A stretch of DNA of 64,000 nucleotides, taken from positions 62,001-126,000 of the forward strand of contig NW_022279581.1 of the NCBI RefSeq assembly GCF_000004075.3. The letters run 5' to 3'. Both the position numbers and the translations under genes were made by a program. Shown piece after piece: positions 31,363 through 61,900 of this stretch. Within the stretch, counting starts at the first letter, position 1; each line of letters begins with the position of its first letter. The notes beneath the pieces were generated by a model that saw only the letters and a program-made list of their open reading frames with translations, was not told the DNA's origin and made no database searches. Source of the DNA: Cucumis sativus (taxonomy: Eukaryota > Streptophyta > Magnoliopsida > Cucurbitales > Cucurbitaceae).

Positions 31363-31364
31363 TT

Positions 31365-33412: not shown

Positions 33413-33870
33413 GTACTTCATTCACTTCAAAACTGCTTCAGCCAAATCTATAGATCAGTAATTTAGATCCAAAATTGGAAAACCTATTATGATCTGATTT
33501 CAATTTAATTTTTTTTAAGGTTTCGTTTGGTTTAAATTCAGATCAATCTGTTTGGTGGTTGACTTCAGTGTTACCGGAACGTGTATAACTCTCAAATTTG
33601 GGAAATTGTAGATTTAAAATTCTTCTTTGAGCAGTTTTACCAAAACGTAGTTAAAAGCACGATTCTTCCCCCATTCCACACGACCCCCCTTTGGCTAATC
33701 TACCTCAATTCTTTCAGAAGCTTGTCTCTTTAATCTATACCCTAGGATTCTTCAAAATCCATTTCTATTTGCTAAATTTTATATGGATTAGCTTTGTATT
33801 TAGGAATTGCATCATATGTGGAATTGATTGGATCACACATTAATGTTTCTTCACTGCTACTCTTTTGCAG
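33413..33870 (+). other. Intron in the RPN2 5' UTR
   Basis: Donor CCGAG|GTACTT after 33412 and acceptor TTTTGCAG at 33863-33870, two bases before the ATG. The pyrimidine-rich stretch before it (about 33200-33412) is the likely first, non-coding exon. Confidence 0.6.
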
Positions 33871-33872
33871 CA

Positions 33873-36800
33873 ATGGCTAGAAACCTAGTTCCATTTCTGG
33901 TGCTACTTTTTTGGATTTCGATCTGCCAAGCTGCAAACATTTTTCAGCCGATCTCAGATTCACATAGATATGCGGCTCTAGAGCTCTTCAGGCCTACTGA
34001 CGGAGTATTTGGAAGGTACTACTATTAGACGCTTTTTACTTGAGGAGTTTTTGTGTTTATTTTCTTTTCGCCTCCCTCGGTTAGATAGATTTAGTGCATT
34101 AAAAGGTGGCAGTCAAATTTTTGGACTAATCATGAGTGAGAAGGTTCGTCATCAATTCTAAAATAGTTATGGGAAAACGCCCATTTGATTAATGGTACTA
34201 ATATCCCCCTTTTTGCCTTCTGATCTGGAAATTGTTTTTCTTTTTAATATAAATTATCTTGTCAAACTAAGTTTTTACATCAACTACTTTCATGATAGCA
34301 TTGGGAAGGAGGTTTCATTTGTGATTCCATTCACAAGCCTTTCTGAAAGAACTAATTTGACCTCTTAAGGTCTTAATTTAGGGATTCTAACAAACTTTAA
34401 GTAAGTGAAAACCATTTGGCTTGAGATTTTCACTCTCATAACTCAAATAACATGTATTTTCTTTAAATTGATTGGCCTCCTGCAACAACCTTAACGTGGA
34501 AATTGGAAACCATGGGTAGAGGGAAGAAGAAACATTTAAGAGAACATTAATTTGGGCGTAATAAACATTTCATTGATGAATGAAATAATTTAAGGAAAAT
34601 ATGAAGGAGATACACTGAAAAACAGAAGAAGCCCAAATGTGAGAGAACAATTACATCTAAAAAAGAACAAAAGAACAAGAGAAGAAAAGATGAAAATGTA
34701 CAACTGAATATTTTGGATAAAAACAATAAAGCAGTGGCCCAAAACAAAAGCAGTGAGGAACTAAAAAACGTAGAGTGAGAGGAAGACTGATTTTTTCAAT
34801 TGAAACTTGTTCCTATGCATCTGATATTTGAAATAGGTTACAACAGATAATACAATCTGGAACATAGTGGCATATTGTTCTCTAAAAATTTATCATGCAT
34901 TGGTGATATTAACACATCAACTAAAACATATCAGTTTATACATGAGTATATTACCCGTGGTGTTAGTGGACGTGAGGACCAATTGATTGTCCATATATTG
35001 ACCTATGTGGTAATGCATCGGTGTATCTATGGAGGGGAGGCTTAATTTGATTATGCTTATCCGTAGAATTTGACTTCATCAGAGTGGCACCTTTGTGTTA
35101 CCTTTTAAGCGTATGGTGTTGCTATGTTCCAACCCTTTGGTTCATAATATACACGAGTATATTTGAATGTATTCACATTCTATGTTCATTTCATTTTAAA
35201 AACTAACAAAATTAATTGATAAACTAAGATAAAATATAAAACACTTATGAGATTGTTGATTAAATAATTATAGATTCTAACGAACAATGCGTTTTGAAAT
35301 CTCAAATAGTTATTGTTCTATTTTTGTTGCAGAATACTACTTTTGAACTGGTGGTTTTTGGTTTTACTTTTGTTTTTGCATGAGCTACTAAGCCTGCTAT
35401 TATTGTGTGCGGTCTCTCATTACGCCCTTGTTTCTTTTTCTTTGTTTTTTAAAATTTCTATCAGTTTGGAAGAGACACATGAAGCATTAAAACATTTGAC
35501 ATTCTTGGAATTCAAGAGAAACCTGATATTAATGCTGCCACTTGCAAGTCTGTATCAGAGGTTCTTGGTTCATCTGCAGTCCTAAAGGATCTGTTTTATG
35601 CTCTGAGAGTCAACGATGTTTTGAAATGTGACATTAAGGAGGAGACATTTGAGGTATTCTTATACTCGCAGGTGTTTCAATTTCTAAGACTTGAGCTTTG
35701 TGTCAGATCTTTTTTACTTGCTACTTTGAAAATTAATTCTTAAAACATTTTCAATATAACATTTTGTAGAAGTTTTGTTTATTTATTGAGGTGGCATAGT
35801 AACAAAACTTGTATTATCGACAAAAGCTACAGAAGAAGGATGGTATAACCCCACTAAGCATAGGGGATTACCAAAAAGGACTCCCAATGACAACTGATGC
35901 AAATATGCATCATATCATGATTAAAAATATTGTTTTTTACAAAGATTGCTGAGTGACAAAAACAGGTTAGCTGAATCCTAAAAAGCATCAAAACAAGCCA
36001 TATCTGCTTGAACACTCTTTAGTTTCTTTGAATTCAAAGCCTCCAATTATGGGATGCCATTGAATTAGACCATGGAGTTCTAGTATGCCCTTTAAAACCG
36101 GAATAACAAGAACTTGATGCAGAGCTTCAAGGCCTGCTAGGGAAGCACCACATCACATTGGAATAAGTGGGCTTGATCCTCTAAATTTGATTTGCACAGA
36201 AGACACCAGTTGGAAAATGAAGGTGTAGTGAAACATTATTTGGATCATGCAAGTTTGCAACCAGTATTCAGTTTTTTGAAGGAAGAATGTAAAAGAAATC
36301 CTTCATCTTTCTAGGCTTTAGCTTTCCGAATCAAACAAGGTGACTGAGAATGACATATTTTTCTCATTTTTCGTGGGCAATACCAAGAAAAAACACATGA
36401 AAATGGCTAAGTACTTGCATTCTTTTCTACCTTTTTGTTATAAAACCCATCCTATATTTTAGGCCAAGGAATTATTTATTGTTCTTTTCTATCTCTATGC
36501 ATGACTTCCAAACAACTCTTATGTCATTGGTTGTGATCCATGTTCATGATGTGATTTTTTCTTTTGATTTTGTGAAGAGCATTACTTAAGACTTACAACT
36601 GCTCTAAATGATGCGCGATCACTGTTTGACTTCTACTACTCTATAGGAAGTTTGTTACTTCTGAAGGTAACATGACAACACATTGCATTTCTTCTTATTT
36701 TTTATGATGATTTAAAATTCAAATATGAACTGTTTAAAGTTCTTATTACCCAATGAATGATGTGATGAGAAGACTTGCAAATTCTTACAGGTGTATATCC

Positions 36801-39800
36801 TTAATTCCATTTTGATCTTTGGATTTAGTAATTTTCTTTCATTATTTGCAGGAACGAAGTTCTGGAATTGATCTATCACTTAATGACGCTGATGGTACTT
36901 TTCAGTCGATCAAGGTTAGTTTATGTTAGTTTTCAGCATTGGAGAAATGGAATTATATATAGGCTAGGAATAGAAAGTCGAAAAATCTAGTTTCCATTTG
37001 GGGCTTACATTTTGCTTTTCCTTATATTGATGAGAAGTTGTTTTGAACTAAAAATAATAATTAAAACTGCATCAAGCTCTGTAGATTAGATTAAATATCA
37101 TCTAGAAATCATATGTAGATATTTTACCTTATCCCATTTTTTTACTATTAACTGTATTGTGCTTACCGAAAGTATCCATATTGTTTACCCTTCAGTCTAC
37201 TTCGTGCATAATTTGCAGGCATTGAGCCAAAGTGATGGAAGGTGGCGGTATAGTTCTAATAATCCTGAGTCTAGTACTTATGCTGCTGGTACTAATTCGT
37301 CCATAATTCTTCACCTATCATAATTAAAAAATTTCTTTTGACATTCTTGTTGTATGCTATTGTAAATAGTGATATAACTCTTTAATGCAACAGTGAAGCT
37401 TCTTAGTTTTCTCATTGTATTAGGATAACCGAAAGACAAAAGCATAATTTCTCTTCTTATCCATATTTTAAAAAATATTACTTGTCATCTTAGTTGCCAT
37501 TTTAACTTAGACGGTTAGATGGAGTTTAAGAAAATAATCATTCTAGAAATGACTGTGTACTTTAATGTGTGTTTGGGGTAGTGATGAAAATCCTATGTGA
37601 AGTTAGTTGCAAAGGAAATAGTTACATTTTCATGACTAGGCAGTAGTACGCAATACCTTTCTCCCATGAAGTTTAATCTTAAACATTATTATAATTTACA
37701 AGCGTCAACACTAATGAATTTGACAACAAGAACCATTTCTCTTTTCTTAATTGCTAAACAAGTGGGAGGTGTAATTGTTTATCACTTACCATGACTGAGC
37801 TTTTTTGGAGGTATGCATGTATTTAGGCTAGTATTTTTAAAATTGTATTCCTATCCAAATTTGCAACTTGTATGAAAATTTAGAATCTCTCTCTCAAGGA
37901 AGTTCCTTGCTTCTTTCTGAAAATTTTAAAATAATTTATTAAATTCCAGAAATTTGTGAAAGTGAGATTTGTGTGGAACTTAGATTATGAATAATTGTAC
38001 ATTCTTTTTATATCATGCCTGGTTATCATTTTAAGTGATAAGTTAAAAATTTTCAGTTGCTTGATACTTCGTTGCCTTGTATTGTATTTGTTGTTTGTTA
38101 TTTGCTTTTGTTCTTGTTTTTTGTTTTTTGTTTGGTTTTATTCTTTTATTTGAGTCTAGATGGCTTAAACTTTGTAGCTTAAGCCATATGCTTTTATTAG
38201 CACTTGAATAAAATATAACTTTGTTATTTACGCTATATAACTCTATAGGATTGGCACTTGAATCCCTTGCTGGTGTTGTGTCATTAGATCATCGGACATT
38301 GATCAAATATGGTACTCTCACCTCTTCTTTTCTGTCATATTGCTGTTTAGCTCTGAAATCTTACGTTCCTTTCTTGTGAAAAATTTCTCATACCTTTTCT
38401 TTTACTAGTGTGACTAGTCACGATTATAGTTATTATTAAACCTAGATCTCAATTTGGGATTTTGAAAAATTTGAGGAAGCTCTTTTTTTTTTGGATAAGA
38501 TACGATTTCATTGATTGAATGAAATATTCAAAGATATGATGCGGCAGCATGGCTTCAATCAAACGGTATACAAAAGAAAAAAAATGTTTCCAATTAGCAA
38601 TGAGAAAGGAAAAGCTATGGTTATATAGGCTGGTATATCAATACACCATAGAAAGCTGAATGATACTGTTGCCAATAATGTCCTTTGTTATTCTATATTT
38701 TCCTTGGAAATGCTTGAATTCCTTTCGTTCCAAATCTTCCACTAAAACCACCGATAATGCTTAACTATAAATGCCCCTTTGATGCTTTTTAAGGGTGGTA
38801 ACATATCAGCAAATGAAGCCAACTTTGTATATTCATGGGGGAGAACAACGACCAGTTAAACGCCTCAAGAATCTCGAACCATATCTCTCCAGAGAAAAGA
38901 TAGTAAAAAAATACTTGTACAAATTCACTGTTCTTTTTGGCAGAGGCTATGATGGAGTGAGGTTGATCCAAGGGCCGTGCTTTTTGAAGCCTATTCATTG
39001 TATTAAGACAAGAGTGTGTCACTTCCCAAATGAGGAATTTCACTCTTTTTGGACAGGAGCATCTCCAAACATCTTGAATAAATTGTCAGTTTGAAATAGC
39101 ATGCTAGTTGGTGAGATGAGTGTATAATATTGATTTGGTGGAGAAACTTTTAGGCTCTAGCTTCCATGACCATGCATCTTCACGGTCAGTAAGGGCAGAT
39201 TAAGGAGGAGATGGGTGAGTGCAGCAGCCCATTCAAGAATTTCATCATCCTTTAAGAGTCTTCTGAAGTTATCCTTCATATGCATTGATCAGAATTCTAG
39301 ACTTCCTTTCACAGAAGCATATTTAGTGCAGTCAAATGAAAGAGCTTAGGAAAGATCTGTTGAGAGGGGATTGACCGAACCAAATGTCGTTCCAGAATGA
39401 TGCTATAGTGAATATTTTCGTATACAAGGTTTTTGCTGTAGAATGTATTTCCAAGGGCTTCTAGATGATGAAATTCTTCAGCTGATGCCTTAAGATCAAA
39501 ATGTTAATCATATTTTGCCTTTCAATTTACGCAAAGAGTTTCCTTTTTTAGTAAAAACGCCAAAGCCATTTGGCAAGGAGGGCATTGGTGTGCTGATTGA
39601 TGTCGATGATTCTCAACCCTCCAACCTTCAAAGGTTTCTTGAGGCAGTCCTAGCTCAATAGGTGAGTTAAGTTTTGTCTCTGTGGCCAGTCCATAAAAAT
39701 TACTGAAAAAGTGTCAATCCATCAATGATTTTTGTGCGGGCATGTAAGAGGGGTAAATAATAAATGGGCTGAGTGGATAGAGTTGCATTAAGAGAGTCGG

Positions 39801-42800
39801 GTGAACTCCTTTTGAGAGAAGAATAGGACAATGCACTCTCACCCTGTCCCTCCACTTCTTTCCTTTTCAAACACCTCAATCCTTGAAACATTACCACTCA
39901 GGGATTGGAAGTTTGCTTCATCAAGTGATCCATCAACATCAACCAAAAAACCTTCTCCCTTGTTTGTCAAATGCATAGAAAGGCAAATGAACTAGATTTA
40001 CAGAGATTGGTTCTAATCCATAATCCAGCTAGTGGATCTCATACCTTTCTCAGCCTTTTGGCCAAGATCAAGTGTAACCATCTAGTGGATCTCTTTATCT
40101 TGGTTAATCATCTTAAAATTAATGGGTGATTGTTGCTCGAGCTTTTCAAAGAACAAAGAAGTAAACTAGTAAAGTTTTCATTAAAAAGCCTAACCAAATG
40201 AAGGTTTTGACAAAAATGGTGATTGAATTCGTTTGTCACTCTTACTGGATGGAATAGAAAAAAAATGAGGAGTTTTGAAAGGACTAAAAAAGATCATAAA
40301 TACCTTGAAAGTTATCACACAAAACAACGCTTTGGATAGACTGTTTGGAGTCACAGAGATATCAAGCCTTCTCCATTCTTCCCAAGTGGTCACTCTTTAA
40401 GGGACAGTGAAAATCATTGTGTGATTATGAGAGCTTTCTTAAAGACTTTTTGGAATGACAAAAGCATTTTTGAAATCAAGAACTTCACTCCGTTTTCTCT
40501 TTACAGAGTTGTTAGAGATATGATCAAGGTGTACCTCCTCAATCTGTCGTTTGGGGAGAAAGACCGCTTTCTCTGGTGTGCTAGCATCAGTGCTATTCTG
40601 TGGGTGCTTTGGGATGAGAGGAATAGTAGGTTCTACAGGGGTTTTGATAATGGGAATAAAGGTTTATGGTCTCTTGTTCGCCTTCATGTTTCCCATTGGT
40701 CTTTGTACGAAAATCTTTTGTAACTATCCTATGAACATGATTTTGTCTAGTTGGAGTCCTTCTTATGGTGGGATTCCTTCTTTTTGTGGGCTTGGTTTTT
40801 GTATGCTCATGTATTTTTTCATTCTTTCTCAATGAAAGTTGTGTTTCTCATTAGAACAAAAAAATAAAAATAAAAGGAAAGAATGGTGGCTAATTGGTTG
40901 TTTATTATTGCGAACTGCCAATTGTCTTTAAAAATTTAAAATGTAGCCGCTTGGGAATTGTTATGCAATTTCCTGACTATCTGACATTTAGAAGATGCTT
41001 GGTCCTGGTTCCCCCAGTCTGTAGTATCCTTTTGATGGTCTTAATTTTGTAGTTAGACTATGTCTTCACTTCTTCTGTGACCTTAAGTGATTTTGAAATA
41101 CATGAAGACGAGTTACTTCCTAATATGAAGTCTTTTATTAAAGGAAACTAGGATGAACATGAAAGACGAAAAACCGAGTCGATTGACCCAACCTAAGTCA
41201 GTCGGTCGGAAAATGAGGGGGTCGGTTTCGGAAAGTTTCAAATCGAAAATTTCCAAAAAGTATTTCAAGCGTTAAACCAACCTGACAAAAACCGACCAAC
41301 CCTACTCATCGATGTCGAGGGTCGAGGTCAGTTTGAACATTTACTAAATCGACTATGGTTTGTTTGGTGGCGGTTTTGTAAGAAAAACCAACTTTGATCG
41401 ACCGATGATCACCCCTAAAGGAACCAAAATTTGAAGTCATAGTCACCAAACATGTTGTCATCTTCTGGTTCGCTTGTTATGACTATAGACTTTGTGACTA
41501 TTTTTGTTTTATCATGTTCGTATTCTAATTCTACTGCTTTTACTGCTTTTGTCAGTTTCAAACTGTAGTTTTTTAGCTTGCCAATTTCATATTTGTATGT
41601 ATCTTTTTTTGTAGATTGATACGGTAAAGAATGATATATTGAAACTCTTTGACAGTATTGAGAAATATGGTAAGCTTTCGCCTCCATTATTCGGACCTGG
41701 ATTTTATTGAAAAGCTTGTGCAATTTGTCACCTTCATCTTGAATTATTACTGTTCCATTTGATCTTGGAGTACGGGTGGATGGTCCGGGTCTGTTCCATG
41801 TACTTGCCCAGTAGAAAAGTGGAAGCAGAGAAGCATTGAATTTAGCCCTTTTTAGCCTCCACTTGATCTGTTAACTTATATTGAAAAGTTTTATAATTTC
41901 TTTAGTTTGCAGCTGCCATTAAATATCTTCTATAGAATTTGGCATCCAACCATGCAATCTTTGTTTTCCTTTTGAAACTATACCCAACTTGTTTGCTGTA
42001 TGTTCTATCTAGTTGAATCTTTAAAAGCCTGATGTTGATTTACTATTTTTATTACCAGCTTTCTTTAAAGCAAATGAAAGAAATTAAACATAAACTAAAC
42101 AACCAGAAACAGAGGAGGGTCATGAAAATTTAAGAAATCATGGGCCCGCCAGCAATAGAATCTTTCAAAAACCACAAATTATTTCAGGAAACTGTCACAT
42201 TCTTGGTGACAAAATTAATTTTCACTAACTTTACCTTTGCTTATTAGGTAGTCCAAGCCTCGAATCTTTGGGGGTTTTTCCCCTTGAATATTTGTATAAA
42301 TTTATTTATTTAAGTGAATAACTGAACTTCTCTGTGAAAATAAAAAACAAGTGCGTACACAAATAAAGCCCAAAAAGGGGAGGGAAACCAAAAAAAATGC
42401 AACTCTAGTGCAAAAGTGGACTTGTGGGGATAATTACAAAATTGCTCGCCATCAATGCCAAAGAGAAATGAGCCCTTTAAAGATTTTATTGTTTTTCTTC
42501 TGTGGGCCCCATGAAACGTACGGACTTGAAATCTCTGGTAATATAAAAATGATTGTATAAATTGAAGTTGGAAGGATTTTGTCTAGTTACTGTTTCCTTC
42601 AAATTTCAATTGTTGTAGAACTCAATAACATGCTCTTTTCTGTCTCTGTGCATATTCGGAGTAAGATTATAATCCAAATTGGGAACTTCCTTCTTAATAT
42701 CTGCACCTTTTTTATTGTTGGCTAACTACTCTGCATAGTTAATTTGTTGAAGTCTTTGTCTTTCAGATGATGGAGCTTTATATTTTGAGGAAAAAGTTGT

Positions 42801-45800
42801 TGATGCATACGAACATCATGGGCCTCTTGCAACCACATCTTCAGTTGTCGAGGGTTGACAGCATTTACTTCTGTTACTTCTGGAAGCTTAAATGTGAGTG
42901 CAGACATAAATTTGTATTCTGGTTCCTTAATTTAATATATAACAATTTGGTTTTCATCTGCAGCTTCCTGGGGATACAATTTTTGGTCTGGCAAAATTCT
43001 TCCTTGGCATTGGAATTCCTGGTGATGCAAAAGACTTATTTGACCAAATAGATTCCTTGGCTTGCTTGGAGACAAATAGGTAAGTATTTTTTTGTTAGTC
43101 ACAGTTAGACTTGGTTGGTCAGTAGATTTGGAGTTTTATATGGAACATTCTTTTTAATATTTTTTTCATTTTTTAAATCGTATTGTTGGTCTAAGGATCA
43201 ATTGCACTATTTGGCAAATGATTGGTCTAACCTTTGGATGGGTAGACTTTCGAGACTTGAACTACTGGCCTACTGGGAAAATGTTTGGTTGTCTTCTTGG
43301 GTTTTTAGAAAAGGCTAGGACTTTCAAAACCAATGTTTTTCTGAAACTCACGGTGCACTGATGCAAATTGCCTGTAGGCCTTAGGTGCGAGGTGCAAAAT
43401 TTTACGACGCAATAATAGAAAAATATAAAAATATTTTTATGTTTGAAGAAAAATGGTGTTACAAATGATGAGATGATGAAAAAGTTCAACAAAATATAGC
43501 TTTTATTCTAGATGATAGGGAAGGAAGTGAATATCTCATGGGTTTCTTTCTTAAATGCTACAAAAAGAAGAAAGAGGAAAAAGAAGAAAAGATGGGAAAT
43601 TGAGCTTAAGGTGTTGAGGTGCACACCATAAGCTTTGAGGCTAGCGCCTCAAGTGGCTTTCATTTGAGCTCTATATATATGTTATGTACCCTACCCATAA
43701 TCATTCTTTTTTTATTACGAATAAAAAATATGAACGCTAGTGCTTCTTTTATTTATTGCTTGAAGCCTTGGAATGCCTTATCTTTGTATACTTTGGTATA
43801 TATATATGTATATTTCATTTTTATTGTCTCTCAAGAAGGTAGAGGAAATATATATCGTTTTGCTATTGTCAATTGGAAGGTTAAATAACCTGTGGACACA
43901 CTGGAACTATTAGTTTACTTTGATATAGAACTCAGTTTGTCTATCCTTTTCAATTGTAAGTGCTGCATATTCTGAATATTTGTTTCAGTTGAAGGGGCAA
44001 ACTATTGTCTTGTATTTTCTGTAACTTGTATTGAAGGTTTGTTTCTTTTTTTGGTAAGACTAGAGCCTCTCATGAACTTCAATAAAAAGAAATAGATTGA
44101 CTTTTTACAATAGGGTTGGGTGTCTTGTTTGGCCACTTGGTCTTCTTTACATGATAGAATATTTTGTTTCTCATACCATTATTGCTTGGATTTCTTGTTT
44201 CAATTCTGTTTTCTTGCCACAGGTTTTCTATTCCGTTGATTTTATCTCTTCCAGCTACTGTTCTTTCATTAACAAAGGAAGACAAACTGAAGGTTTATTC
44301 TTCTTCTAAACTTGCTTTAATTACCATAGCATCTTCTAGAAGTATTCTCAAAATTTTGTTTGTTCACCAATGGGTTAAGGGGTATGGGCATTTCATTTGT
44401 TTTATTCGTGAGTTTAATATAGAATCTGGTTTAGATCACTATGTTATGGTTTTGATACAGGCATGATATCAGAATCAAATTTAGCCTACAGATTTTAGCA
44501 TTAAAGGAGGTGCATTGTTGTTAGTGCTGTTGTGCCACTGGTCTTTTGTGCTTATGACTTTCTTAGGGAAGTTTGTTTTATGAAAAATAATTGGTGAACG
44601 AATAAATATAATTTAATGGAGAAAAGTAAGAACCAAGTTTAACTTAATTTTATAAATTTGGTATAAGTTAGTTTTGGTTCCTGAAATATTTTTTGGAAGT
44701 AACAATTTAGTCTTGAACTTTATCTTGTAACTTTCAATTTTGTAACAATTAAGTTTCTAAATGTTAGTTTGTAATAATCTAGTCCGTTTACTTCAGGATT
44801 TGAATTAGGCTTATCATAAAGTATTGTTTAGATTTAATGAGTTTTTACATATGCATATTGATAAACTAATTGGAAACGAATGTGTACGACAAAATTGTTA
44901 CAAAAGTTGTCTTCTGGTTGATGTTGTGCATTCCTTTATGTCTTTTGAGCTTACAGCCTGTTCGAGATGGAGCCTTTTATTCAAATTCATTGGTGGATTA
45001 TAATTAACGTTAAATTTTATCAGGTTAGCATGAATACTGTGCTTGGTTCAGCTGCACCTCCTTTAACTGTGAAGATAGTTAAAGCTTTTCTATCTGGTTC
45101 AAAAGACACTTCCATTATCAGCAGCCAGGTCTGATAGTTAATATTCTTCATATTTGCTTCATTGTATTTGAATGTTATAAACTGAAAGCGTTCCATTTAA
45201 TTCAGGTGTTTGTTTTGAATTTGATAAATTAACGTCACTTCATTTGTTACTTACTATTGTTCTTCTTTGTTTTTGGAATTATAGGAACTCAAGTTTGATC
45301 CTCTGTCTGGTCTACATATCTTGGATGCTTTCCCCAAGACCTTTGATGTTGGAAACTATGTCTTCGTGTTTGAGGTAATTTATTTTTCTTATAATTTTAT
45401 TTAGCACATGCTTTTGGAGTTTGTCCATGATCTGTTGAAAATATTCTTTACACTTTTTCTAGGTTGTTCTTCATGATTCAGAGCATATGGATAAATATGC
45501 CACTGGTGGGAAGATTCAAGTTCCAATATATATCTCAGGAGTTGTCAAAATTGAGAATGCAGAGATTGCAGTTCTTGATAGCGATCTAGGGAGTGTCGAG
45601 ACCCAGAAGAAGTAATCATTATTATGCTATTTTCATTAATGTTTTCAAATCAACTAGTTATTGATTTAATATGGAGTTCTCTAAATGCTTTTGATTGTCT
45701 TTTATGCTTTTAATTTTGGAAGTAAAGAGATATAATTTTTCATTCGGATTCATCCAGGCTTGATCTAGTTGGTGAGAGTGTTGTTTCATTGTCAGCAAAC

Positions 45801-48710: not shown

Positions 48711-48790
48711 TTGAAAGAAAAATTATGGGATATTTTACAAAATATTAATAATTTGAAAGAAAAATTATGGGATATTTTACAAAATATAAC
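48711..48790. repeat. 42-bp tandem duplication
   Basis: TTGAAAGAAAAATTATGGG starts at 48711 and again at 48753, followed in both copies by ATATTTTACAAAATAT. Confidence 0.8.
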
Positions 48791-50690
48791 AAAACGCTAA
48801 AATATTTTCACTCTAAAGAACAATTTAAAAAACGTCACACGCGTAATATATTTGGTTATCCAAATCTAAATGATTTTTAAGGATTATTTGGTACACGACG
48901 TTTAGATTTAATTTTTATTTATATAAAAATGGTTTTTATTTATATAAAAATGTTTTAAAAGAGTAAATAATTATATCTAAAAATGTTATTTTAAAATATA
49001 GCAAAATATTTATAAACATGAGAAAGAATTGTAATTGTAGTATCACATAATCAATCTAAATAAGATGTGAATGACATTTTAAGATCATATACCATATTGG
49101 CCATTGGTACAACCAATTCAAAGTTTGAATATTGGCAAAAGAAACTACCAATCAAAATGTTGTGGTTGAGTTATGTGTACTCTTAAGTTCTAATAGTTCC
49201 TTTAATTTGAAGTACATCTGCCTACGCTACTTCCAATTTAGCAACTTTCCTTGTACAACACAAACTCTACTTCAATGAAAGATCAAATGCCTTTTTCTTT
49301 ACAAATTAGAAGTTGGAGAGACCAATCAAGTTAACTCATCACTTATAATATATATATATATGTGTACATATATTCCCTACAAAACAAGAATCAATCAAAG
49401 AATGATAAAATCGACTTATTCTTACGTGTAAGATTCACTTTTGTCTTTTTTTCAAAAAAAAAGAAATTTATAATAAATACTTTATCGATTCATAAATAGA
49501 TGATTTCAATACATCATGTCAACGTGACCAAATGAGTCACTTTTACCAACAACACAACCTACCCTACCACCATACCAAAGTAGTGTATATATATATAATA
49601 CAACAATGTGAATGCCTTTAAGTTCATCCTAAATTTAATAATTGTGTCCATCAAATGGATTCACCTTTTTCTTCACCAAACAATTTCTTCCTCCACTTTT
49701 CCAAATTAATCATTCCCTTTCTCTTACTTTTCTACTTCTTTTCCTTTTATTATTCATTTTCGGTTAAAATATCACTTTCATACTTCTACTTTTAAATTTA
49801 TATATTTATGTAATTTCAATCAAATTTAAATTTAACCTCTTAAAGTTTTTGTTTCTCTCTCTCGTTTTTGATCAAAATTGGTAATATAGTCTTATTGATG
49901 AAAACAAATAAAATATGTAAATTTGTTATCAAATTTTACCGTGAAAATATTGATAATTAATATACTTTTTTTTTAAAAAAAAAAAAACCATGATTTGAAA
50001 ATAAGGGATAAAAGTTTGACAATATTTTTATTTTCTTTTTATGATTCAATTTAATATACATGCGTCAAAAGAGACAAGTGGACAAAATATATTTATTAAG
50101 TTTAGAAAATTTCTGTATGAATTTTTTCTTGTAAATAGTTTTGTTTGATTGTTATTGAAAAAACCTCTTTAAACGTCCATTTTTTAAAAAAAATAGCAAA
50201 AATGGGAAATTATTTATAAAATATACTTTCTCTACAAAAAAAAAAAAGTTAAATGAGTTAGGAATTATTTTATTTTATGAATAATGAGTTTAGAAGGTAA
50301 TTTTTGAATTGGTTAAGATTATAATGGGTTTTAAATAAATTGTAGTTTAGTCACAAATTTTTTGAAAACATACCTGAAAAGTTGCCAAAGAGTATCCTTT
50401 ATTTAATATATTTATATAGAGGATGGGGAGTTTATTATTTTATGTTCACTAGAAATATATATAATAGGATAGTCTACTAAAATTAATAAAAGAAAGATAA
50501 GAGAATTTATCAGGACTGACCAAAATTTGATGAACATTTATCTTATCAATCTTCGTAGTTTTCAAAAAAACATAAATAATCGTTCCATTCACTCACTCTC
50601 CAATTTTAACCAAACTTTAAATTCCCTTGGTTCAATTAAACTTCAAATTTGAATAAAGCATTCCTTATAAATATATTAATGGTATTGAAA

Positions 50691-50727
50691 ATGAGTGAAT
50701 GAGTGAATGAGTGAATGATTGAATGAA
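50691..50727. repeat. (GAGTGAAT)n-type microsatellite
   Basis: Four consecutive GTGAATGA units, the last with T for G. Confidence 0.85.
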
Positions 50728-51462
50728 GAAATAGTAATTATGAAGAATTTAAAAGAAAAAAAAGCGTAATAGTCCAAATATTGTATGAACTGAAACAAAA
50801 GAAGTGGATGGAAGGCGTGGTAAAGTTAAAGGGTTGAGTGAGAGATTAGGTTGATAAATTCACAAAATTAATTAATTGAGAAGAGAAAGAGAAGAAATGA
50901 AAATTGTAAGAGCATTGGAAGGTCCCCACCTTATCTGACGCCATGCTTTCTTGGGACTAAGAAAACTCTTTTCTTTCCTTCTAGACAATGGAAACCAAAA
51001 AATCATTAGAGAAGAAAGACAAAGAAATGAGTCTTCTCATCCATCTCCTTCAACCTTGATTTCCAAATACAAATGGCTCTTCCTAGTAGACTCATTCAAT
51101 GCTGAACCACACGCCGATCAGACTCCATTAAACACCCTCTTTATTTCTCACCACCATCACCTCCCTTCCTCACTCAAAAAAAATCATCAACCCCCTTCTC
51201 CCTCTCTCTCTTCTTTCGCCACTTGTCCCCAATTTTCTTCCTTTCCTACCCATTTCCCCACCTCCTCCTTTTCTCTAATTTGTATCATTTTACCTATTCA
51301 TGCCACTAATTTAATTGCCACTGCCTTCGTGCAGAGTGCTTATAAGAGGGCTTCCATCCTGCATGCCCACCAAGTGTTTGATCCTTTGTCTGACTCTAAA
51401 TTGAGATTCTACCTTCTAAATTCTTGCTTCTCTTTTTGTTTTTGGCTGTTGGGTTGGACAAA

Positions 51463-51787
51463 ATGAGCTATGCTGGAATCGGTATTAGTCCAGGGAATGT
51501 CCCTGTGTATCATGGCTCCAATTTGAAGGTCTTTGATAAGAGGGTGAGGGTGGTTGAATTGGTGTTGCGGTTTCTGATTTGTGGCCTTGGTGTTCTTGCT
51601 GCTGTTCTTGTGGGGACTGATACTGAAGTTAAAACTATATTTACCATTCGAAAGAGGGCCACATTCACAGATATGAAAGCTCTTGTGTAATCTCTCATTC
51701 TCTCTCTATGTTTGTTTCAATCTTGTTACTGCGTATTTTGTTTCTGTAGCTGGTCGGATTTTGGTCCTACGTATTAACTACTACTTC

Positions 51788-51830
<43 letters not shown>

Positions 51831-53699
51831 GTCCTGTTTCTTGGTTTGGTTTGGTTTTACAAATTAAACTATTGGTAGACTCAAAGCTAAATTAAACAAG
51901 ATTGAAATGATGGGCCTGTGGCTCTAATGTACAAAATTTCCTTTCACTTGTAGGCTATAAAAATTGGCACGTAATTCATTATGGAGGTTACCTCTTAGTA
52001 TTGACACAAGCTTCTCTGATGCTATGATATATCACAGGTTTTTGGTGGTAGCAAATGCTGTAGCAGCCGCTTACTCTTTGGTGCAAGGATTGCGATGTGT
52101 GGTGTGCATGGTGAGGGGAAAAGTGCTCTTCAGCAAGCCTTTAGCTTGGATTATTTTCTCTGGCGATCAGGTACATTTTAGATCTGGGAGATTCCCTCTG
52201 AAAATCCAAATTTCTTAGCCCTTTTTTCCATTTTTACTCAGATAACTAGATGACCATATTACCCTAGGAAATTGTTCTTTATATGTTTTTTGCTTCATTT
52301 TTTTTTTCTCCTGCTACGGGTAATATCTGATTCTGGCCGTGAATAAATCGACTTATGACTTTGGCTGGTATTGTCTGAGGATTCTATTATCATAAACTAA
52401 AGAACAAATCACTTGTTGTATGGTTAAAGTAATAAATGCAAGTTCCAACTGAAATTTGGTGCTACCAACCTCTGTCCAAAAAATTTATGTGGCCTACAAT
52501 AAGTATTCTTCTGGACTTCAGTATCTTCTTATCTTCCTCTCTTGCTTTCTGTCCTTACAATTTTACATATGTATTTTAGGTTTGGTTAAATCAGAATTCC
52601 TTTTTGTTTTTATCTCCATGTCCTTTAAGCTTAAGCTCAACGGGTAGTTTATTGTAGTTCTCAACTCCTCATAGTTGCAGAAGTTCCATTACCCTATAAT
52701 TCAATTAAGCTTATCCCACAGCCTTGTTCTTACTTAAAAGTATTATAGATTATTTGTTGTTATTGGTTGTTGATACCAAAAGGAGAGAAATTTTGCGGAT
52801 TATGGTGGCACTGCAGAATCAGATTAGTTCTATTCTTAAAATTTTCCTTCCAATGTAAATTATCGAAACTCTGCCCAAATACTTGTTTATTAACCAATAT
52901 TAACTTGTCAGACCCACATTAATATAATACTTGAAGCTTACCTGTGTCGTATTCATAACTTATTGCCATGAAGAGTGGTCCAGATTCTAAACAAAGGATT
53001 GTCCAGATTCTAAACCACTTTCAAATTTTGTCACCGAACAATTTGTTTGTCTATTGGTCTCTATATTTTCAATGTTTTTTCTTAAATTTAAAAAGTCTAA
53101 TTGATTCCTAAACTTCAATTTTGTATCCATGACCTCTTATACAGCATTTCTTAAAATAGACACAATTTTAAGTTTGAGATCCTCCTAGAAGTGAGATTCA
53201 ACTTTAAATCGGATCACTTAAATTTTAGAAGTTTTGAAAATTTCAGGATATCTAGCTTCAGCCCAAAATTAGAAGTTAAAAGATTCAAAGATTTATCGGA
53301 CACAAAATTGAAAATATACTTGAAAATATACTGTGTCTTGTACTTACAAGACACAAAATTGAAAATTGAAAGTATAAATATTTTAGATACATTAAACACG
53401 TAAGAGAAGAGAATGTTGAAGTTTAACAAGTATTGTTACTGGTGCAGATTATGGCGTATGTCACAGTGGCAGCAGTGGCATCGGCAGCCCAGTCAGCAGT
53501 GTTTGGGAAGCTGGGGCAGCCAGAGTTGCAATGGATGAAGATATGCGATCTGTACAAGAAGTTCTGCAACCAAGTAGGGGAGGGACTTGCAAGTGCAGTG
53601 GTGGTCAGCTTGAGCATGGTGGTTTTATCTTGCATTTCAGCCTCCAGTCTCTTCCGCCTCTACAATGGAGGCAAGAACAAGAGCAACTCAAGATGGTAA
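51463..53699 (+). CDS. CASP-like protein, 2B group
   Basis: This is a four-span plasma membrane protein of the Casparian-strip membrane domain protein-like family (DUF588/MARVEL-like), which forms membrane scaffolds. Exons 51463-51686, 52038-52170 and 53448-53699 give 202 residues with intact frame and clean junctions. The start [20 protein letters not shown] is typical of the 2B group. Membrane segments: about 30-52 ([21 protein letters not shown], with the conserved Arg), 75-98, 120-140 and 168-192. The loop between 3 and 4 holds [13 protein letters not shown] and FCNQVGEG. Intron 1 carries a long (CT)n microsatellite. Confidence 0.93.
51789..51828. repeat. (CT)n microsatellite in intron 1 of the CASP-like gene
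   Basis: About 20 uninterrupted CT units, roughly 100 bp after the donor site. Confidence 0.9.
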
Positions 53700-54839
53700 G
53701 CCTTTAGAGTTCACAAGTGAAACATTCGAACCTCCGTAGCCTGATCCCCACTCTGAGCTTTCTGTGAGGAAATGTTGGGATTTTCAGTGATTCTGGTTCA
53801 AAGAAATGCATGTTAAAAGTGTCCAATTCTCATGAAAAACAATGGTACATCCTTCTTTAGTAATAAATTTATAAGTTGAGGAATAGACTTGTATTTATGA
53901 GAATTTTGACCTCCTTCGAAAAAAATGCAAGTATGTAGCTGAAGATAAATGTGGGTCAAAATCAAAGATTGGTCTATGCATATTGGGTGTGTACTAAAAG
54001 AGAGAAAGAAATCCAGTCTGGAAACGCAATTAAATTAGAAGCCAAAGTAGTAGTAGAGCTAAGTAGGAGAATTAGATTTAGGAATGATTAAGGTAAAGTT
54101 TTGAATTGATGGATCCTCTCGAGCTCAGCAATGCAGCATTTGGTTATAAGATGTTAATTAGGCAGTTGTAGATAGGGAATTAATTACCCTACCATAAATG
54201 TTTAAGGTGGATTTTCGAAACACAATGTATTTTTCAAACTCATGACCGAATTTGAGACTTACATTTTGGACTTATTTGCGGTAGAATATTGAACCAAATA
54301 TTTGCTATATAAATCTCTATACTAATATCTTCAATTAGTTATATCCTAACAAAACTTTTATATCTAATAAACATTTACATATTTATTTTAATAAAATTTT
54401 GTCTTAATTGACCCTTTATCTTTAATAAATGTTTATGTATTTATTCTATAAAATTTTCAAAATATATATTTAACTAATCCATCCTATCTATTTTTTCTAA
54501 GATTTAAAACATATACATTTAATAAAGTTTTCAAAATATATATATATAATTTTTTTATTAATTTATTATCTAAAATATGGAAATAATTTTTTCAAAATAT
54601 CTGTTTTGTCTAATTTAGAAATCATCCTATTTCTTAAATAAAATTCAAACTCTTATCAAAAATTTTATTTTTACTTTTTCTATTGTTATAATTAAAGATT
54701 GTCTTTTTTGTTATAAAATAAAGAATAATGAAGTTAAATAAAAACAATCAAACAACACAAAAGAATAGAATGAAAAATAAAAATGGTAGAGAACAATTGA
54801 GTAATAAAAATTAAAAAGGTAGAGAACAGTTGAACTCAA
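53700..54839. other. Intergenic, AT-rich
   Basis: 3' flank of the CASP-like gene, then sequence of very high A/T content (54260-54800). No gene or repeat is supported. Confidence 0.5.
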
Positions 54840-57700
54840 TTGTTGTTGTGTATCTCAAAGAGGCATCACATGTCATGATATGGGTTACATTATAAAACTC
54901 AAATGAGATGAATGTTATAACATAGAATTGAGGGAGAGTTATAGAACTCAAATGAGATGAATGTTGTAACCTATTGTAGGTCATGAATATCTACGTAATT
55001 ATATTTACTATCCCTTAGATATTCATATTATATAAGATAAATGTCGGAAAAAAGTACATCATTTTTATATATTAATAACTGCCTCATTAAAAATTTTGCT
55101 AGAAAAATTCAATGAAAAAAATAAAGTTAAAGGAAAAAGAGTGCAATACTTCAATTCTTTAAAGACAATATTTCTACCTCTAATACATCACTTGAGTTTT
55201 CTGAGTCGTCGCATTCCAATATTGTACCCTAACTTTTCAAATGTTAACGTGGGTAATGCCTTTATGAACAAGTCTCCCAAGTTATCCTTTTAAGAGTTTT
55301 AGTGAGATATGTTTGATTTTATTTTCTTTATATACCCTCCTTTAATGTATGTTATACATGCAATATTGTTCTCAAATAATATTGTTGGTAGATTTTTACT
55401 GAAAAACAAACCACATGTTTCTTGAATATGATGAGTCATTGACCTCAACCATACATATTCTCTAATAGCTTCATGAATTGCAAGAATTTCTGCATGATTC
55501 AATGAAGTGGTTGTAATGGTTTGCTTTACAAATTGTCAAGATATAACAGTTCCTCCACATGTAAACAGATAATTTGTTTGAGACCTTGCTTTGTGTGGAT
55601 CATATAAATATCCAGCATCTACATAATCAACTATATCAAAGTGTGATTTGTTTGAATAAAACAAACTCATATCAATCGTCCCTCGAAGATAACGAAGTAC
55701 CTGCTTAACTCCATTCCAATGTCTTTTTGTTGGAGAAGAAGTATATCTTGTTAATAAATTTACTAAAAGTGTTATATCTAGTCTCGTGTTATTAGCAAGA
55801 TACATTAGTGCACATAAGGTAGGACCAAGTAATTTTTCATTATCTTCTCGAGGTCGAAAGATATCCTTATTGAACCACCATTGGAATGTAATAGGTGCTA
55901 AAAAAATTTCTACATGGGTGTGCTTTGCAAATCAAGCATTTACCCATTGGAAGAGCTTTGGAATGGTCAAAACACACCCATCTGTTTTTGCATATGTTGA
56001 TTGCTGAATAAAAATTTAATTGGCTAAATGGTTGATTTGGACAAAATTTTGTTTTGTCAAGGTCTTTCGTCTCAAATTCATTTTTGAGATATTCTATTAA
56101 TTTTGAAAGCTCTTTAGTAGTTTCAATTATATTTAAATCTTTAACATATACGGCTATAATAGCAAATCATGATTGTTATTTTTTAATAAAAATACATTGA
56201 CAAATTGAATTATTTTTATAATCTTCTTTCAATAAATATTCACTTAAGCGATTATACCACATTCGTCCGGGTTGTTTCAATCCATGTACTGATCTTTGTA
56301 ATTTGATTGAATATAATTCTCTAGATTTTGAATTATATGATTCAGGTATCTTAAATCCTTCAAGAATTTTCATATAGATTTCATTTTCCAAAGATCCATA
56401 CAGATATGTTGTAACTATATCCATAAGATGTATATCAAGTTTTTCACATACAGTTAGACTAATAAAATATCTTAATGTAATAGCATCCACTACAAGATAA
56501 TATGTTTCTTCATAATCAATGTCCGGTCTTTGAGAAAATCTTTGTGCAACAAATCATGCTTTATATCTAGTGACCTCATTATTTTCATTTATTTTACGCA
56601 AAAATACTCATTTAAATTCCAAGGTTTTACACCTTTAGGTGTATAAACTATAGGTCCAAAAACTTTATGTTTCGAAAGTGAGTTCAATTCTCCTTGAGTG
56701 ACTTCTTTCTACTTGGGTCAATCCTTTATATTATAACATTCGTCAACAGATTTAGGTCCAGAATCCTCATTTTCATGAATGATATTATGTGCAATATTAT
56801 ACGCAAAAAAGTTGTTCACAACTACATCAGTTTTATTTCATCTTTTCTCTGTCATGGTATAATTTATCAAAATCTCATTGTTATTTTCATATACTTGAGT
56901 CTCTTCAACATTTTTACCATTAGTTGTGTCCAAGACTTCTTCTTGAATGTTCCTATTATCAACACAGTCATTTCGACTATTGATCATTTTTCTTTTTAAG
57001 GATTTTTATCTTTTGAACCTATCGGTCTACCACACTTTTGTTGCAATAATGTTGATTCATTAATTGTAGCAACTTGCTGAATTGAAATTTCAATTTTAGA
57101 TGAGCATTTGCAGTTGGAATATATGACTTGATCACTTTCTTAGTATCTGTAAATGCATATGGCATTTGGTTTCTTCACTTTGTAAATGATGTTGTGGTGG
57201 AAAAATTGGAATATGTACTGCACAACCAAATATTCACAAATGAGAAATATTTGGCGACCATAAGCTAATTGTATCGAGGAGTATTTATGATAACATGTCG
57301 ATCTTATACATATAAGTGATGTTGCATGCAGAATAGCATGACTCCATACGGATAATGGAAGTTTTGCTCTCATAAGTAATGGTTGGGCAATCAATTGTAA
57401 ATGCTTGATAAATGATTCTACCAAACCATTTTGTATATGAACATTAGATAGAGGATGTTCAATATTTATCCCAATTGACATGCAATAATTCATAAATGTT
57501 TGGGATGTAACTCACCAGCATTATCAAGTAGAATGTTTTTATTGTATAATCCGAAAATTGTGCTTTTAATTCGATTATTTCGACAAATAATCTTGCAAAT
57601 ACAAGATTTCGACCTGATAATAAACACACATGTGACCATGATGCGTCAGTTAAAACCACGAAATATCTAAATGGTCCACTTCACCATAAATTCGTTCTAA
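54840..57700 (-). mobile_element. Decayed Ty1/copia retrotransposon
   Basis: Pieces of a copia polyprotein in order on the minus strand: integrase core (57659-57140: DASWSHVCLLSGRN, EHPLSNVHIQNGLVESFIKH, LPLSVWSHAILHA), reverse transcriptase (56490-56176: TTYLYGSLENEIYMKI, SVHGLKQPGRMWYNRL) and RNase H (55805-55299 and on to about 55170: QVLRYLRGTIDMSL, NHAEILAIHEAIREYVWLRS, then DNLGDLFIKALP). The frames are broken by stops and gaps. Gag and the 5' LTR were not found. The tail 54840-55077 may be the 3' LTR; it contains a 50-bp repeat (ACTCAAATGAGATGAATGTT at about 54897 and 54946). This is an old, dead copy. Confidence 0.88.
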
Positions 57701-58978
57701 AAAGCAACGTTATCTAACAATCACAATAGTTCTTTTAATTATCTAACAATTACAATAATGCTTTTGTTACTTTTTAATAAAAGAGATGAAATGCATACCT
57801 CACCTTCACTTGTGAAGGATATTGGTTCTTTTGAAGTCGGTTTCTTTGAACCTTTATTCCAGCAACGCTTAATCGTTCGTTTGCCCTTGAACAAGTTCCT
57901 TTGTTTTTTCATATCCTTAATATTTATTTGGATATATTAGATAGATAATCATTTTTAAATATTGATTAGTCCTGCATTGTGTAGAAGAAATTTCTTACCA
58001 CTGAGTAATCTGAGATGATGGATGGAATCACTTAGGTGAGTTTGTTGTCACCTGTGCATATCCCAATCAGCAAGGATTAGAGCTTTCTTCGTGTTATTGC
58101 AGAAATCGACGAAGATATGTTTCCAATATACGAACCCTAGACAGGAGAAGAAAAGGTTTTTATACCTTAATTTTGCCAAGAAAAGGTAAATGACAGAGAG
58201 GTCGAGTTTGCAGAGAAGGTTTTTCTTTCACCACTGGTTTCAACGATTAGGTTGGTGTTGATAAATGAAGATGGATATTATTCCATTTTTTCATTTTCGT
58301 TATTCTATAATTAAAATAAAATTGTGCTAGCCTACCCCATAAATCTGCCCCTTAATTCTACTAATATGGTAGATTATACTTCTGTAAAATCATTAAATTT
58401 GTTTCTTATTTATGGTTTTTTGACCTGTTTTTCAAGGAAACAATTGAACCTAACAAGATACATCAGATACAAATATTAACATGACAAATATTTGATACCT
58501 GCAGGCATTACAATTCCACAGAGAGGCACGAAGAAATAGGACATTCGCTCAACAATATATTTAGACAGTTGAATCTTCTTCATCAACAGAGAGTATGTTT
58601 GAGTATGTTTATTCATAAAGAAGAAAAACAAAACAATAATAAATACCAAAAAGAAAAGAAAAAAAACACTGGTTATAAAAAATTGTAACAAGAAATCAAA
58701 CTATTTCCTTTTTCTTCTTCTATCTTACAACATAAATACAGATCATGTACAGGATGAAGACCTGCAGAGGCCAATTTAGGTGAGGTGGAAGAACAAGAAT
58801 TACATTTTCAAGTGTTAAATTCTATCAAAATTGGGCCTTCTCTTTCCAGGAGTGAACCACAGGTGACTATCGCATTCACAGCAAAGCATGAGGCATAAAT
58901 CTCTCCAAAACTCGGTTATAATTCATCTAGTTTTCAGCTTTTGTGCTACAAAATTCTATGGTTAAGAGTGGTATTTTG
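57701..58978. other. Spacer between the copia relic and NAR1
   Basis: It contains a small tandem duplication (TATCTAACAATCACAATA/TATCTAACAATTACAATA at 57711-57756) and AT-rich sequence, and ends with what is probably the NAR1 3' UTR (58700-58978). Nothing else is supported. Confidence 0.45.
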
Positions 58979-61900
58979 TTACCAGTTGTGGAGTTGAGCA
59001 GTAATGCTTTTTACCACTGGGTGGTATTCAGTGTGCAAATGCTTCTTTGCCTTCTCTGAACCTGGTTCCTCCAGCCACTCCTTGTAAATTTCTTTCACCA
59101 CCGGATTATCAAAAGGATCTCTCATTAAAACCTGCCACGACATTAACAGCATGACCCAATCGAGTTATATAACACAAGTAGCTCAACTGGACATTGAAGA
59201 TAGGAATGGGGGCTAATTAAGAACATTGAGCTATATTACAATATAAAATAACATCTGCAACTTCATAAACAAAAAACTTTCCTCCCAACTCAAATAGCTG
59301 CTAAACCACCCGACCCCATTTAACAGATCGTCCCACATCACAGTAACAGAGTGAAAACATGAAAGAGCTCCAAGTTCAATTGCAGGATGCCAAGCCAGGA
59401 AAAAACCATCCACTTCTCTCCCTACCATTCCCTAACTAATACTGATTACCTCACTCCTAGATTTCAAATGGAACAGACCATATGCAAGCTCAACTCAAAT
59501 CCCACGTAACCAACACAAGTGTGATAAGTAGATCTAGATATATATAAGAACACGAAATGTTTGCTGCTGCTGGCCATCCCAACACAAGTGTTTACTGCTG
59601 GGAGCCTACCAGTAGCTTATCAATTCATAAGTTTGTCTACCAGCATATTGCCACTGCTATTATTTATAGTTTGTTTTCTCAAATTTTATCAAGTAGGCTT
59701 CAGACAAATGGTTTCATATCTACTTATGACTTGATAAGTAATCTAGATATATATAAGAACACGAACATTGTTTAGAAGGAACTACCAAAATATGTTCCAG
59801 ATTGAGCACAGGACGCCATAACGATAAATTCTACATGGACTTACGTTTTCCTGATAAGCAGCTTCTAATAACTCAATCAAGTCCTTTGAGATTGTCCAGG
59901 CTTGGGTTTAATTTGACCCCCTCCATTTAGACAACCTGTTTTTAACAATAATTGACATTAAATATAAGCTCTATTTACCATTCAAACAACTTTATTCGAC
60001 CACAGTTAATCAGATTGCAGAAATTCACCTGAAGGGCAAGCCATAATCTCCAGAAAATGGTAGTCACATTTTCCTGTTTTTATTTTCTGACAACATTTGT
60101 GATTTCGAATCCATAACATAGTGCAAACTTCAACAAAGTCTTCCCTTCCACCTATAACAAACATAGATGGTCAGACATATGCATAAGATAATTATACATT
60201 CACAAGGACTAAAGGAAGAGGAAACAAGATGAAGGTAAGTAATCATATGCGACAAGGTCCACAACTTCAATAATGCAATTCTAAATATGCACGACAGGTG
60301 AACAATAACTAGTGGGATGGGGGGGGGGGGGGTATTATGGGCAAAATTTGGCTAAAAACACCACACAAGAATCATATTAATATTTAAGCTTAGACCTCTA
60401 ACTATCAACGCTTGGTATTTCGAATACTCAATAATTATAAGCCCTTAGTGCCTAGCTCACCTCAAGCGTGAGCTCCTGGAAATCTGAATTTCGAATAAGT
60501 TTGAATTCCAAAGGGCCTTCAATATCTTTGCCAAAGAGTATCTTTGCAGCATGCCTAAAAATTGTTTCTGCATAACCACCAGAACTTCCACTAACTCCAA
60601 AAAGATGCCCTTCTTCATTAACATTAGTCAGCCTGCATGAAAATAGCCCAGCATGATAGCCGTAGATGTCATTACATAACTAAACTCTAAATTTGGAAAG
60701 GCTTGAGAAACTCATTTAGCCTTACATTCTATCCAAAGGGGATTCTTCTAAGCTCTTAAAATCCACCTCTTTCATCTGCAAGCATTGACAAGCAAACAAA
60801 AATAAATAGATAAATAAAGATTTGTGGAAGCAAAACGAAAGATGCAGGCATACTACCAAATAGGAAAACACGCACACACACACACACAAACAACACGAGA
60901 CAAAGGTGAACCTGTATCAATTCTAGAACTTCACCAGATGTCAATACTGAATCTACTTCTGTGATTCTGTGGGCCTCAGCCTCCAGAGTTTTGTTGCCGA
61001 GTCCAACTGAAAAACAAAATCCTCCCTGGCTGCCTCCAGTTTCTTATCATAACAGGGCATCACAGTAACATGGTAAACATCATCTGACCTGCCAAATAAA
61101 CATGAACCATAAAGAAGGATCAAAATCTCAACCATTCAAGCACTACCCTAATGTCACCGCAAAGAAAATCTCTCTAAAAGGACCTTCTAAGCATTGTTCA
61201 AGAGCATGGAAGAGTCAGATATAATTTGTCTATATTATCTCCAATTCTAAGTAGTTGAGAAAATATTTAGGAAATACCAGTATGAAACAGTCAAAAAGCT
61301 TCTACTTGTTCATTCTATAAATACCATAACCATATTTTATCAGTCTATCTCAAACATCATCATCGTTCCACTGTGAATAGCAACCTCACATACCATCACA
61401 ATTTCCAAACAAGTACATCAGAAAGATCAGGAATAATTGATGTAAAATGCAATTATATTTCGTCAGCACTCTTTGGCATTGACCCTCTTCCAAATGCACT
61501 CTGGACTTTGGAATCATCTGGGAAGTATACAGTTAAGTCCTTGTCAAAGCATTTGACAACTTCATCTCACCTTGCAAAAAAGTTATTTTTACAAATTGTC
61601 TGGAAATCTAAGACCCCTTAGAGAATCAATTTTCTGATTTGGATAACCGCTTTTGGATCCCTTATTTGTTTGGATACCCTACAACACACAGTTTCAATCT
61701 TACTATTTATCTCCCTCCATTTTTTTTGTTTTTATGTTCGTGAGTGTCTGGACCAACTTAAGTGCATCTCAACTAATTTCACAGATTAACCCGTCTGACC
61801 CTACAACATTTGGTGTCAAACTTGTAGGAAATTAATTCCTAGGGAGCCACCATGGATTTATCTCCCTCCATTTGTCCCCTATGTTTAGCAAATAGTGAGC

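What the first reader, a model, noticed from the sequence alone, without database searches (positions are those of the whole stretch)
35507..61014. Single-base losses at homopolymers break otherwise conserved genes
Read exon by exon, RPN2 lacks one base in exon 2 (GG where GGG is needed, 35507), exon 6 (near 38291), exon 8 (TT for TTT, 42855), exon 17 (CC for CCC, 46791) and probably at the exon 7 start. NAR1 lacks one in three exons (61010-61014, 60083-60086, 59885-59887). The fasciclin gene lacks one after its ATG (about 11858). All are losses, almost all in short runs, and residues and splice sites on both sides are conserved. Pseudogenes would also show substitutions, stops and splice-site decay. 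Residual long-read assembly error is the best explanation; if wrong, two essential genes would be dead here.
Basis: partly seen in the sequence, partly recalled or inferred. Interest (0 to 1): 0.75.

Follow-up and report, generated by a model that had tools for sequence, protein, structure and literature searches.

The report
Unpolished duplicate contig breaks cucumber genes
Two essential plant genes look broken here most likely because this stretch is a second, error-ridden copy of a chromosome region whose genes are intact: an assembly artefact, not biology.

Summary
The base losses are in the window but almost certainly not in the plant. The window is part of an unplaced 160-kb contig (G000:C79) of a 226.6-Mb Cucumis genome; every stretch of C79 that I compared (80.8 of 160.0 kb) has a second copy on C1. 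From window 28,292 to 64,000 the copies differ by 155 indels (123 missing in the window, 32 extra) and 7 substitutions. All 12 differences inside RPN2 and NAR1 exons are single-base losses in the window; the C1 exons read open, and searches hit neither gene elsewhere. Window 7-28,291 is identical to C1 bar one 2-base gap, so the fasciclin break is in both copies and stays unexplained. The contig joins two C1 places 156 kb apart inside a 13.3-kb LTR retrotransposon present twice on C1, as expected for a mis-join across a repeat longer than the published sub-read N50 (10.8 kb). Best reading: a redundant, chimeric contig of a PacBio assembly (probably cucumber 9930 v3) that short-read polishing did not reach. 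Ordinary; low interest. No reads could be examined.

The parts
28292..64000 (.). Error-laden copy of C1 (minus strand, ending at C1:11342671): 123 places with bases missing, 32 with extra bases, 7 substitutions
7..28291 (.). Stretch identical to C1 (minus strand, from 11562000 downwards) apart from one 2-base gap in a T-rich stretch at 20757
18928..32257 (-). 13.3-kb LTR retrotransposon (Ty3-type domain order), hybrid of two C1 copies: A (C1:11529758-11543079) and B (C1:11374531-11387188)
27292..28292 (.). Interval in which the contig switches from element copy A to copy B: the join
33873..47499 (+). RPN2 (ribophorin II, OST subunit 2) locus, 19 exons, six single-base losses against C1
35492..35493 (+). 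RPN2 exon 2: one base missing against C1
36587..36588 (+).
38287..38288 (+). RPN2 exon 6: first base missing
38307..38308 (+).
42849..42850 (+). RPN2 exon 8: one base missing
46792..46793 (+). RPN2 exon 17: one base missing
58979..62751 (-). NAR1 (cytosolic Fe-S assembly), last seven exons; first exons lie beyond the window
60996..60997 (-). NAR1 exon 60912-61088: one base missing
60086..60107 (-). NAR1 exon 60029-60151: four single bases missing (60087, 60099, 60101, 60107)
59888..59889 (-). NAR1 exon 59845-59935: one base missing
11325..11863 (-). FAS1-domain gene: ATG at 11863-11861 is one base out of frame with the 178-codon frame; same letters on C1

Best explanation
The window belongs to a redundant, chimeric contig. 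Shown: the compared parts of C79 repeat two stretches of C1 that lie 156 kb apart, joined inside a repeated 13.3-kb retrotransposon; its copy of the RPN2-NAR1 side carries about 4.3 indels per kb, mostly single-base losses, in exons, introns and spacers, with almost no substitutions; the C1 exons of both genes are intact and no third copy was found. Inferred: C79 is a left-over long-read contig of the same plants. Illumina reads aligned better to the clean chromosomal copy, or fell under the mapping-quality cut-off, so polishing did not correct C79. No gene is dead in the plant.
For: Second copy on C1. 123 missing, 32 extra, 7 substituted in window 28292-64000. All 12 coding differences are losses in the window, and C1 RPN2 exons 2-19 and the seven NAR1 exons are open to the final stop; the C1 proteins align over 100% of their length to Cucumis melo OST2 (96%) and, for the 298-residue NAR1 part, Cucurbita pepo NAR1 (92%). 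Published cucumber variation is 2,902,954 SNPs to 1,388,197 small indels (PMC8813957, passages); 155 of 162 as indels has binomial p 4e-66 (over-stated, since events cluster). Losses favour runs: 79 of 106 against 53%. NAR1: 6.7 coding and 6.6 non-coding events per kb. The 13 NAR1 and 34 RPN2 protein matches in the genome all lie on C1 and C79. C79 left end: 29 losses, 1 gain, 0 substitutions in 9.1 kb; another unplaced contig, C66: 7 losses, 0 gains, 1 substitution in 3 kb against C5. Published pipeline of 9930 v3: 46.2-fold PacBio, sub-read N50 10.8 kb, six pre-assemblies merged, Pilon with -minmq 10, 78 unplaced super-scaffolds (PMC6582320: abstract, passages, sections 5 and 14). The Polypolish paper describes repeat errors left because reads align to the error-free instance (PMC8812927, passages).
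Against: No reads, coverage or RNA-seq could be examined. Window 7-28291 is free of such errors, so the polishing explanation does not cover the whole contig, and the patchiness is unexplained (variance/mean 5.2 in 35 one-kb bins). In RPN2, exons have fewer events than the rest of the gene (2.9 against 7.6 per kb; within 35300-42900, 7.6 against 11.2). The right part of C79 beyond the window has 4 adjacent substitutions to 9 indels, less extreme. The identity of the assembly as 9930 v3 is inferred from size and contig number (226.6 Mb in 88 contigs here; 226.2 Mb in 85 super-scaffolds in the paper).
Confidence: 0.95

Rival explanations
1. C79 is a real rearranged haplotype or copy: recombination between two same-strand LTR elements removed 156 kb, and the base losses are low-coverage sequencing errors on top of a true structure.
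For: The join lies within a 13.3-kb element present twice in the same orientation, the classical substrate for a deletion; window 7-28291 is nearly free of differences.
Against: The same geometry is what a mis-join across a repeat longer than the reads gives (sub-read N50 10.8 kb). The presumed line is inbred. Substitutions are nearly absent, so C79 is not a diverged haplotype.
Confidence: 0.05
2. A recent genuine segmental duplication whose RPN2 and NAR1 copies are decaying as pseudogenes.
For: Two near-identical copies exist in the assembly; one has frameshifts in both genes.
Against: 155 indels to 7 substitutions, against about 1 indel to 2 SNPs in published cucumber variation. No splice border is lost in the exons checked and no coding substitution is seen.
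Confidence: 0.01
3. The breaks are real and read through by programmed frameshifting or RNA editing.
For: Losses sit next to conserved residues and intact splice sites.
Against: Introns and spacers carry the same kind of losses (150 of 162 events lie outside the coding exons considered); an intact copy of each gene exists. No Rfam family reached its gathering score in the window (weak evidence).
Confidence: 0.005
4. C1 is wrong and the window is right.
For: None found.
Against: All 12 coding differences keep the frame in C1 and break it in the window, and the C1 products align end to end with melon and squash proteins.
Confidence: 0.005

Closest known systems
Residual indels of long-read assemblies left in repeats after short-read polishing (Polypolish paper, PMC8812927, passages read)
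   Same: Mostly missing bases, favouring short runs, frameshifted genes, errors left where a second, clean instance attracts the short reads.
   Different: That paper treats bacterial repeats; here the 'repeat' is probably an artificial duplicate of a plant chromosome region, and a 28-kb part of the contig is nearly error-free.
Redundant or chimeric unplaced contigs in draft genomes (recalled concept)
   Same: Near-identical to a placed chromosome stretch, joined at a repeat.
   Different: Join is inside a hybrid LTR element, with 156 kb of C1 absent between the two halves.
Unitary or duplicated pseudogenes (recalled concept)
   Same: Frameshifts in otherwise conserved genes.
   Different: No excess of substitutions, no splice decay in the exons checked, losses also in introns and spacers.

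Membership tests
Residual long-read consensus error | Indels far exceed substitutions | tested here: met
   155 indels, 7 substitutions, window 28292-64000
Residual long-read consensus error | Mostly single-base, biased to losses | tested here: met
   136 of 155 are one base; 123 of 155 are losses
Residual long-read consensus error | Enriched in homopolymer runs | tested here: met
   79 of 106 one-base losses in runs of 2 or more, 53% expected; modest
Residual long-read consensus error | Blind to coding status | tested here: inconclusive
   events per kb, coding vs non-coding: NAR1 6.7 vs 6.6; all 4.1 vs 4.6; RPN2 2.9 vs 7.6
Residual long-read consensus error | Accurate reads disagree with the assembly | not testable with these tools
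   no reads held
Redundant chimeric contig | Contig covered by placed chromosome sequence | tested here: met
   80.8 of 160.0 kb compared, all matched on C1: window from base 7 on, C79 1-9112 and 126001-133665; the rest of C79 not compared
Redundant chimeric contig | Joins distant places at a repeat | tested here: met
   hybrid LTR element, switch at 27292-28292
Decaying duplicated pseudogene | Substitutions accumulate with or above indels | tested here: not met
   0 substitutions in 2,963 coding bases
Decaying duplicated pseudogene | Splice-site decay | tested here: not met
   AG and GT present at the borders of RPN2 E2-E19 and NAR1 Ea-Eg

The most novel reading that the evidence does not exclude
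C79 records a real 156-kb deletion allele, made by recombination between two LTR retrotransposons, that was carried by some of the sequenced plants and was sequenced at low depth; and the one-base-out start of the fasciclin gene, shared by both copies, is a true loss of that secreted protein in this line.
Probability: 0.05. Interest if true: 0.35.

Novelty: not a real feature. Interest (0 to 1): 0.1.

Why it matters
Anyone annotating or comparing this assembly would count a second, dead RPN2 and NAR1 that most likely do not exist. The same signature in a 3-kb sample of C66 suggests that unplaced contigs of this assembly should be checked for redundancy before copy number, pseudogenes or structural variants are called from them. 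There is no biological novelty.

Tried and rejected
Real pseudogenes: rejected on the indel to substitution ratio and the intact splice borders. Programmed frameshifting or editing: rejected because introns and spacers show the same losses. Wrong exon borders as the cause: rejected because the same exons in C1 join into one open frame.

Fasciclin as the same kind of window-only error: rejected, since both copies are identical there. Of 8 database hits, P0241 (source not shown) has the same 178 residues preceded by an in-frame Met; three named cucurbit relatives begin Met-Gly (P0242 Benincasa, P0246 Cucurbita, P0247 Momordica); two unnamed ones begin with Met and another residue (P0243, P0244); and two begin at an internal Met downstream (P0245, source not shown, and P0248 of Cucumis melo var. 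makuwa), so a melon record also lacks this start. The break is an error common to both copies or a real change; I cannot tell.

Rfam (gathering threshold) and ARAGORN scans of the window were empty. A literature look-up of the length of C1 as a number gave 20 papers, of which the 5 listed were unrelated. No paper describing errors in unplaced 9930 scaffolds was seen among the 10 listed of 19 papers; from that list I read only passages of PMC12395194, which mention 15 Mb of unanchored scaffolds and, in the passages shown, no such errors. The listing led to PMC8812927. An attempt to align C79:52001-62000 with the C1 piece held found no overlap, so that stretch is untested.
Full report
Where the window lies. 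A whole-genome search with window 45000-48000 placed the window at G000:C79:62001-126000 in a genome of 226,625,048 bases and 88 contigs, and found a second near-identical place at C1:11358718-11361721, minus strand. C79 is 160,003 bases long; C1 is 32.9 Mb. The RPN2 protein is 96% identical to that of Cucumis melo. Size and contig number fit the PacBio assembly of cucumber line 9930 (226.2 Mb, 7 chromosomes plus 78 unplaced super-scaffolds; PMC6582320, section 5); this identification is inference.

What the second copy shows. I fetched C1:11335001-11425000 and aligned it. Window 23799-64000 matches C1:11382990-11342671 at 99.4% (174 indels, 18 substitutions). Leaving out the part left of the join (below), window 28292-64000 has 123 places where the window lacks bases, 32 where it has extra bases, and 7 substitutions; 136 of the 155 indels are single bases. 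Right of the retrotransposon (32258-64000) the counts are 119, 27 and 5. Published variation among cucumber lines is 2,902,954 SNPs to 1,388,197 small indels (PMC8813957, passages), so about one third of differences should be indels, not 96% (binomial p 4e-66; the p-value treats clustered events as independent and is over-stated).

The genes. RPN2 here is ribophorin II, the oligosaccharyltransferase subunit (four Pfam Ribophorin_II domains). In C1, exons 2-19 joined at their AG/GT borders give one open frame that ends in the terminal stop; the window copy lacks one base in exon 2 (35493), one in exon 3 (36588), two in exon 6 (38288, 38308), one in exon 8 (42850) and one in exon 17 (46793). Exon 1 (33873-34015, read) has no difference in the list. 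NAR1 (Fe_hyd_lg_C and Fe_hyd_SSU): the seven exons within the window are open in C1; the window copy lacks one base in the exon 60912-61088, four in 60029-60151 and one in 59845-59935. Its first exons lie further right; a frame beginning with the recalled NAR1 start motif is at C1:11339745; the first exons were not compared. All 12 coding differences are losses; there is no coding substitution or gain in 2,963 bases. Protein searches of the whole genome gave 13 (NAR1) and 34 (RPN2) matches, all on C1 and C79, so each appears to be a single gene shown twice.

Signature. Of 106 single-base losses 79 lie in runs of two or more, against 53% of all bases (p 3e-6); of the 12 coding ones 9 do, which alone is no more than chance. 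Events per kb, coding against non-coding: all 4.1 and 4.6; NAR1 6.7 and 6.6; RPN2 2.9 and 7.6. The RPN2 difference is partly regional, since exons 9-19 lie in a stretch with few events (0.8 and 1.8 per kb in 42901-47499), but within 35300-42900 exons still have fewer (7.6 and 11.2). Events cluster: variance over mean 5.2 in 35 one-kb bins, densest at 35-41 kb and 62 kb. This patchiness is not explained by the comparison.

The left part and the join. Window 7-28291 is identical to C1 from 11562000 downwards apart from one 2-base gap in a T-rich stretch. On C1 this stretch lies 156 kb away from the RPN2 side. The bridge is a 13.3-kb LTR retrotransposon (window 18928-32257; gag, reverse transcriptase, RNase H and integrase domains found in separate open pieces in Ty3-type order on the minus strand; the order rule is recalled). 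C1 has two copies in the same orientation: A at 11529758-11543079 and B at 11374531-11387188. The window agrees with A up to at least 27292 and with B at 28292 and further marker sites; the first difference from both copies is at 28429. The element is longer than the published sub-read N50 of 10.8 kb, so a mis-join is the simple reading; a true deletion by recombination between A and B is not excluded.

The rest of C79. At its left end (C79:1-9112) there are 29 losses, 1 gain and no substitution against C1; right of the window (C79:126001-133665) 7 losses, 2 gains and 4 adjacent substitutions. So I compared the window but for its first six bases, and these two stretches: 80.8 of 160.0 kb of C79. 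Arbitrary 3-kb samples of three other unplaced contigs (C52, C66, C78) each have a near-identical place on C5; of these only C66 was aligned letter by letter, with 7 losses, no gain and 1 substitution. The C52 and C78 samples lie in repeats with several near-identical places, so they say little.

Mechanism. Shown: redundancy of the parts compared, chimeric join, differences nearly all indels, intact C1 exons. Inferred: the published 9930 pipeline merged six long-read pre-assemblies and polished with Illumina and Sanger reads through Pilon, twice, with a minimum mapping quality of 10 (PMC6582320, section 14). Where a clean copy exists, short reads go to it and the flawed copy stays uncovered; the Polypolish paper describes this for repeats (PMC8812927, passages). 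Why window 7-28291 escaped errors is not known.

The fasciclin gene. The FAS1 match is at Pfam's cut-off (22 bits). C1 has the same letters (window 10600-13400 fully identical; 9100-14900). A database protein with the same 178 residues begins with Met in frame (P0241, source not shown); Benincasa, Cucurbita and Momordica relatives begin Met-Gly; a melon record begins only at an internal Met. So the break is either an error common to both copies, which are not independent here, or a true change.

Verdict. It is an artefact of the assembly, to the extent that can be told without reads.

Noticed in passing
G000:C5:7508814-8092558 and C5:8262218-8845908 (outside the window): Repeat hits on C5 pair up at a nearly constant offset of 753.35 to 753.40 kb, and a 2,000-base sample is identical in both places: a block spanning about 580 kb may be present twice on C5, either an assembly duplication or a very recent segmental duplication. 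Only the sample was compared.
   Followed up: partly
G000 contigs C52, C66, C78 (L038, L039, L040): Three of three sampled unplaced contigs have a near-identical place on C5; C66 shows the same loss-dominated signature.
   Followed up: partly
18928-32257: LTR retrotransposon with several tandem arrays inside (112-base unit at 20775-21447, 39/79-base unit at 21720-22960, 89-base unit at 23460-23987) and 55-base repeats in both LTRs; copies A and B on C1 match each other less well in the array region.
   Followed up: partly
11325-11863: Start codon of a FAS1-domain gene out of frame in both assembly copies, while P0241 and several cucurbit relatives keep it in frame; a melon record (P0248) begins only at an internal Met.
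   Followed up: partly
56000-57600: Minus strand looks, by eye, like decayed Ty1/copia-type polymerase remnants next to NAR1 (read, no search made).
   Followed up: no
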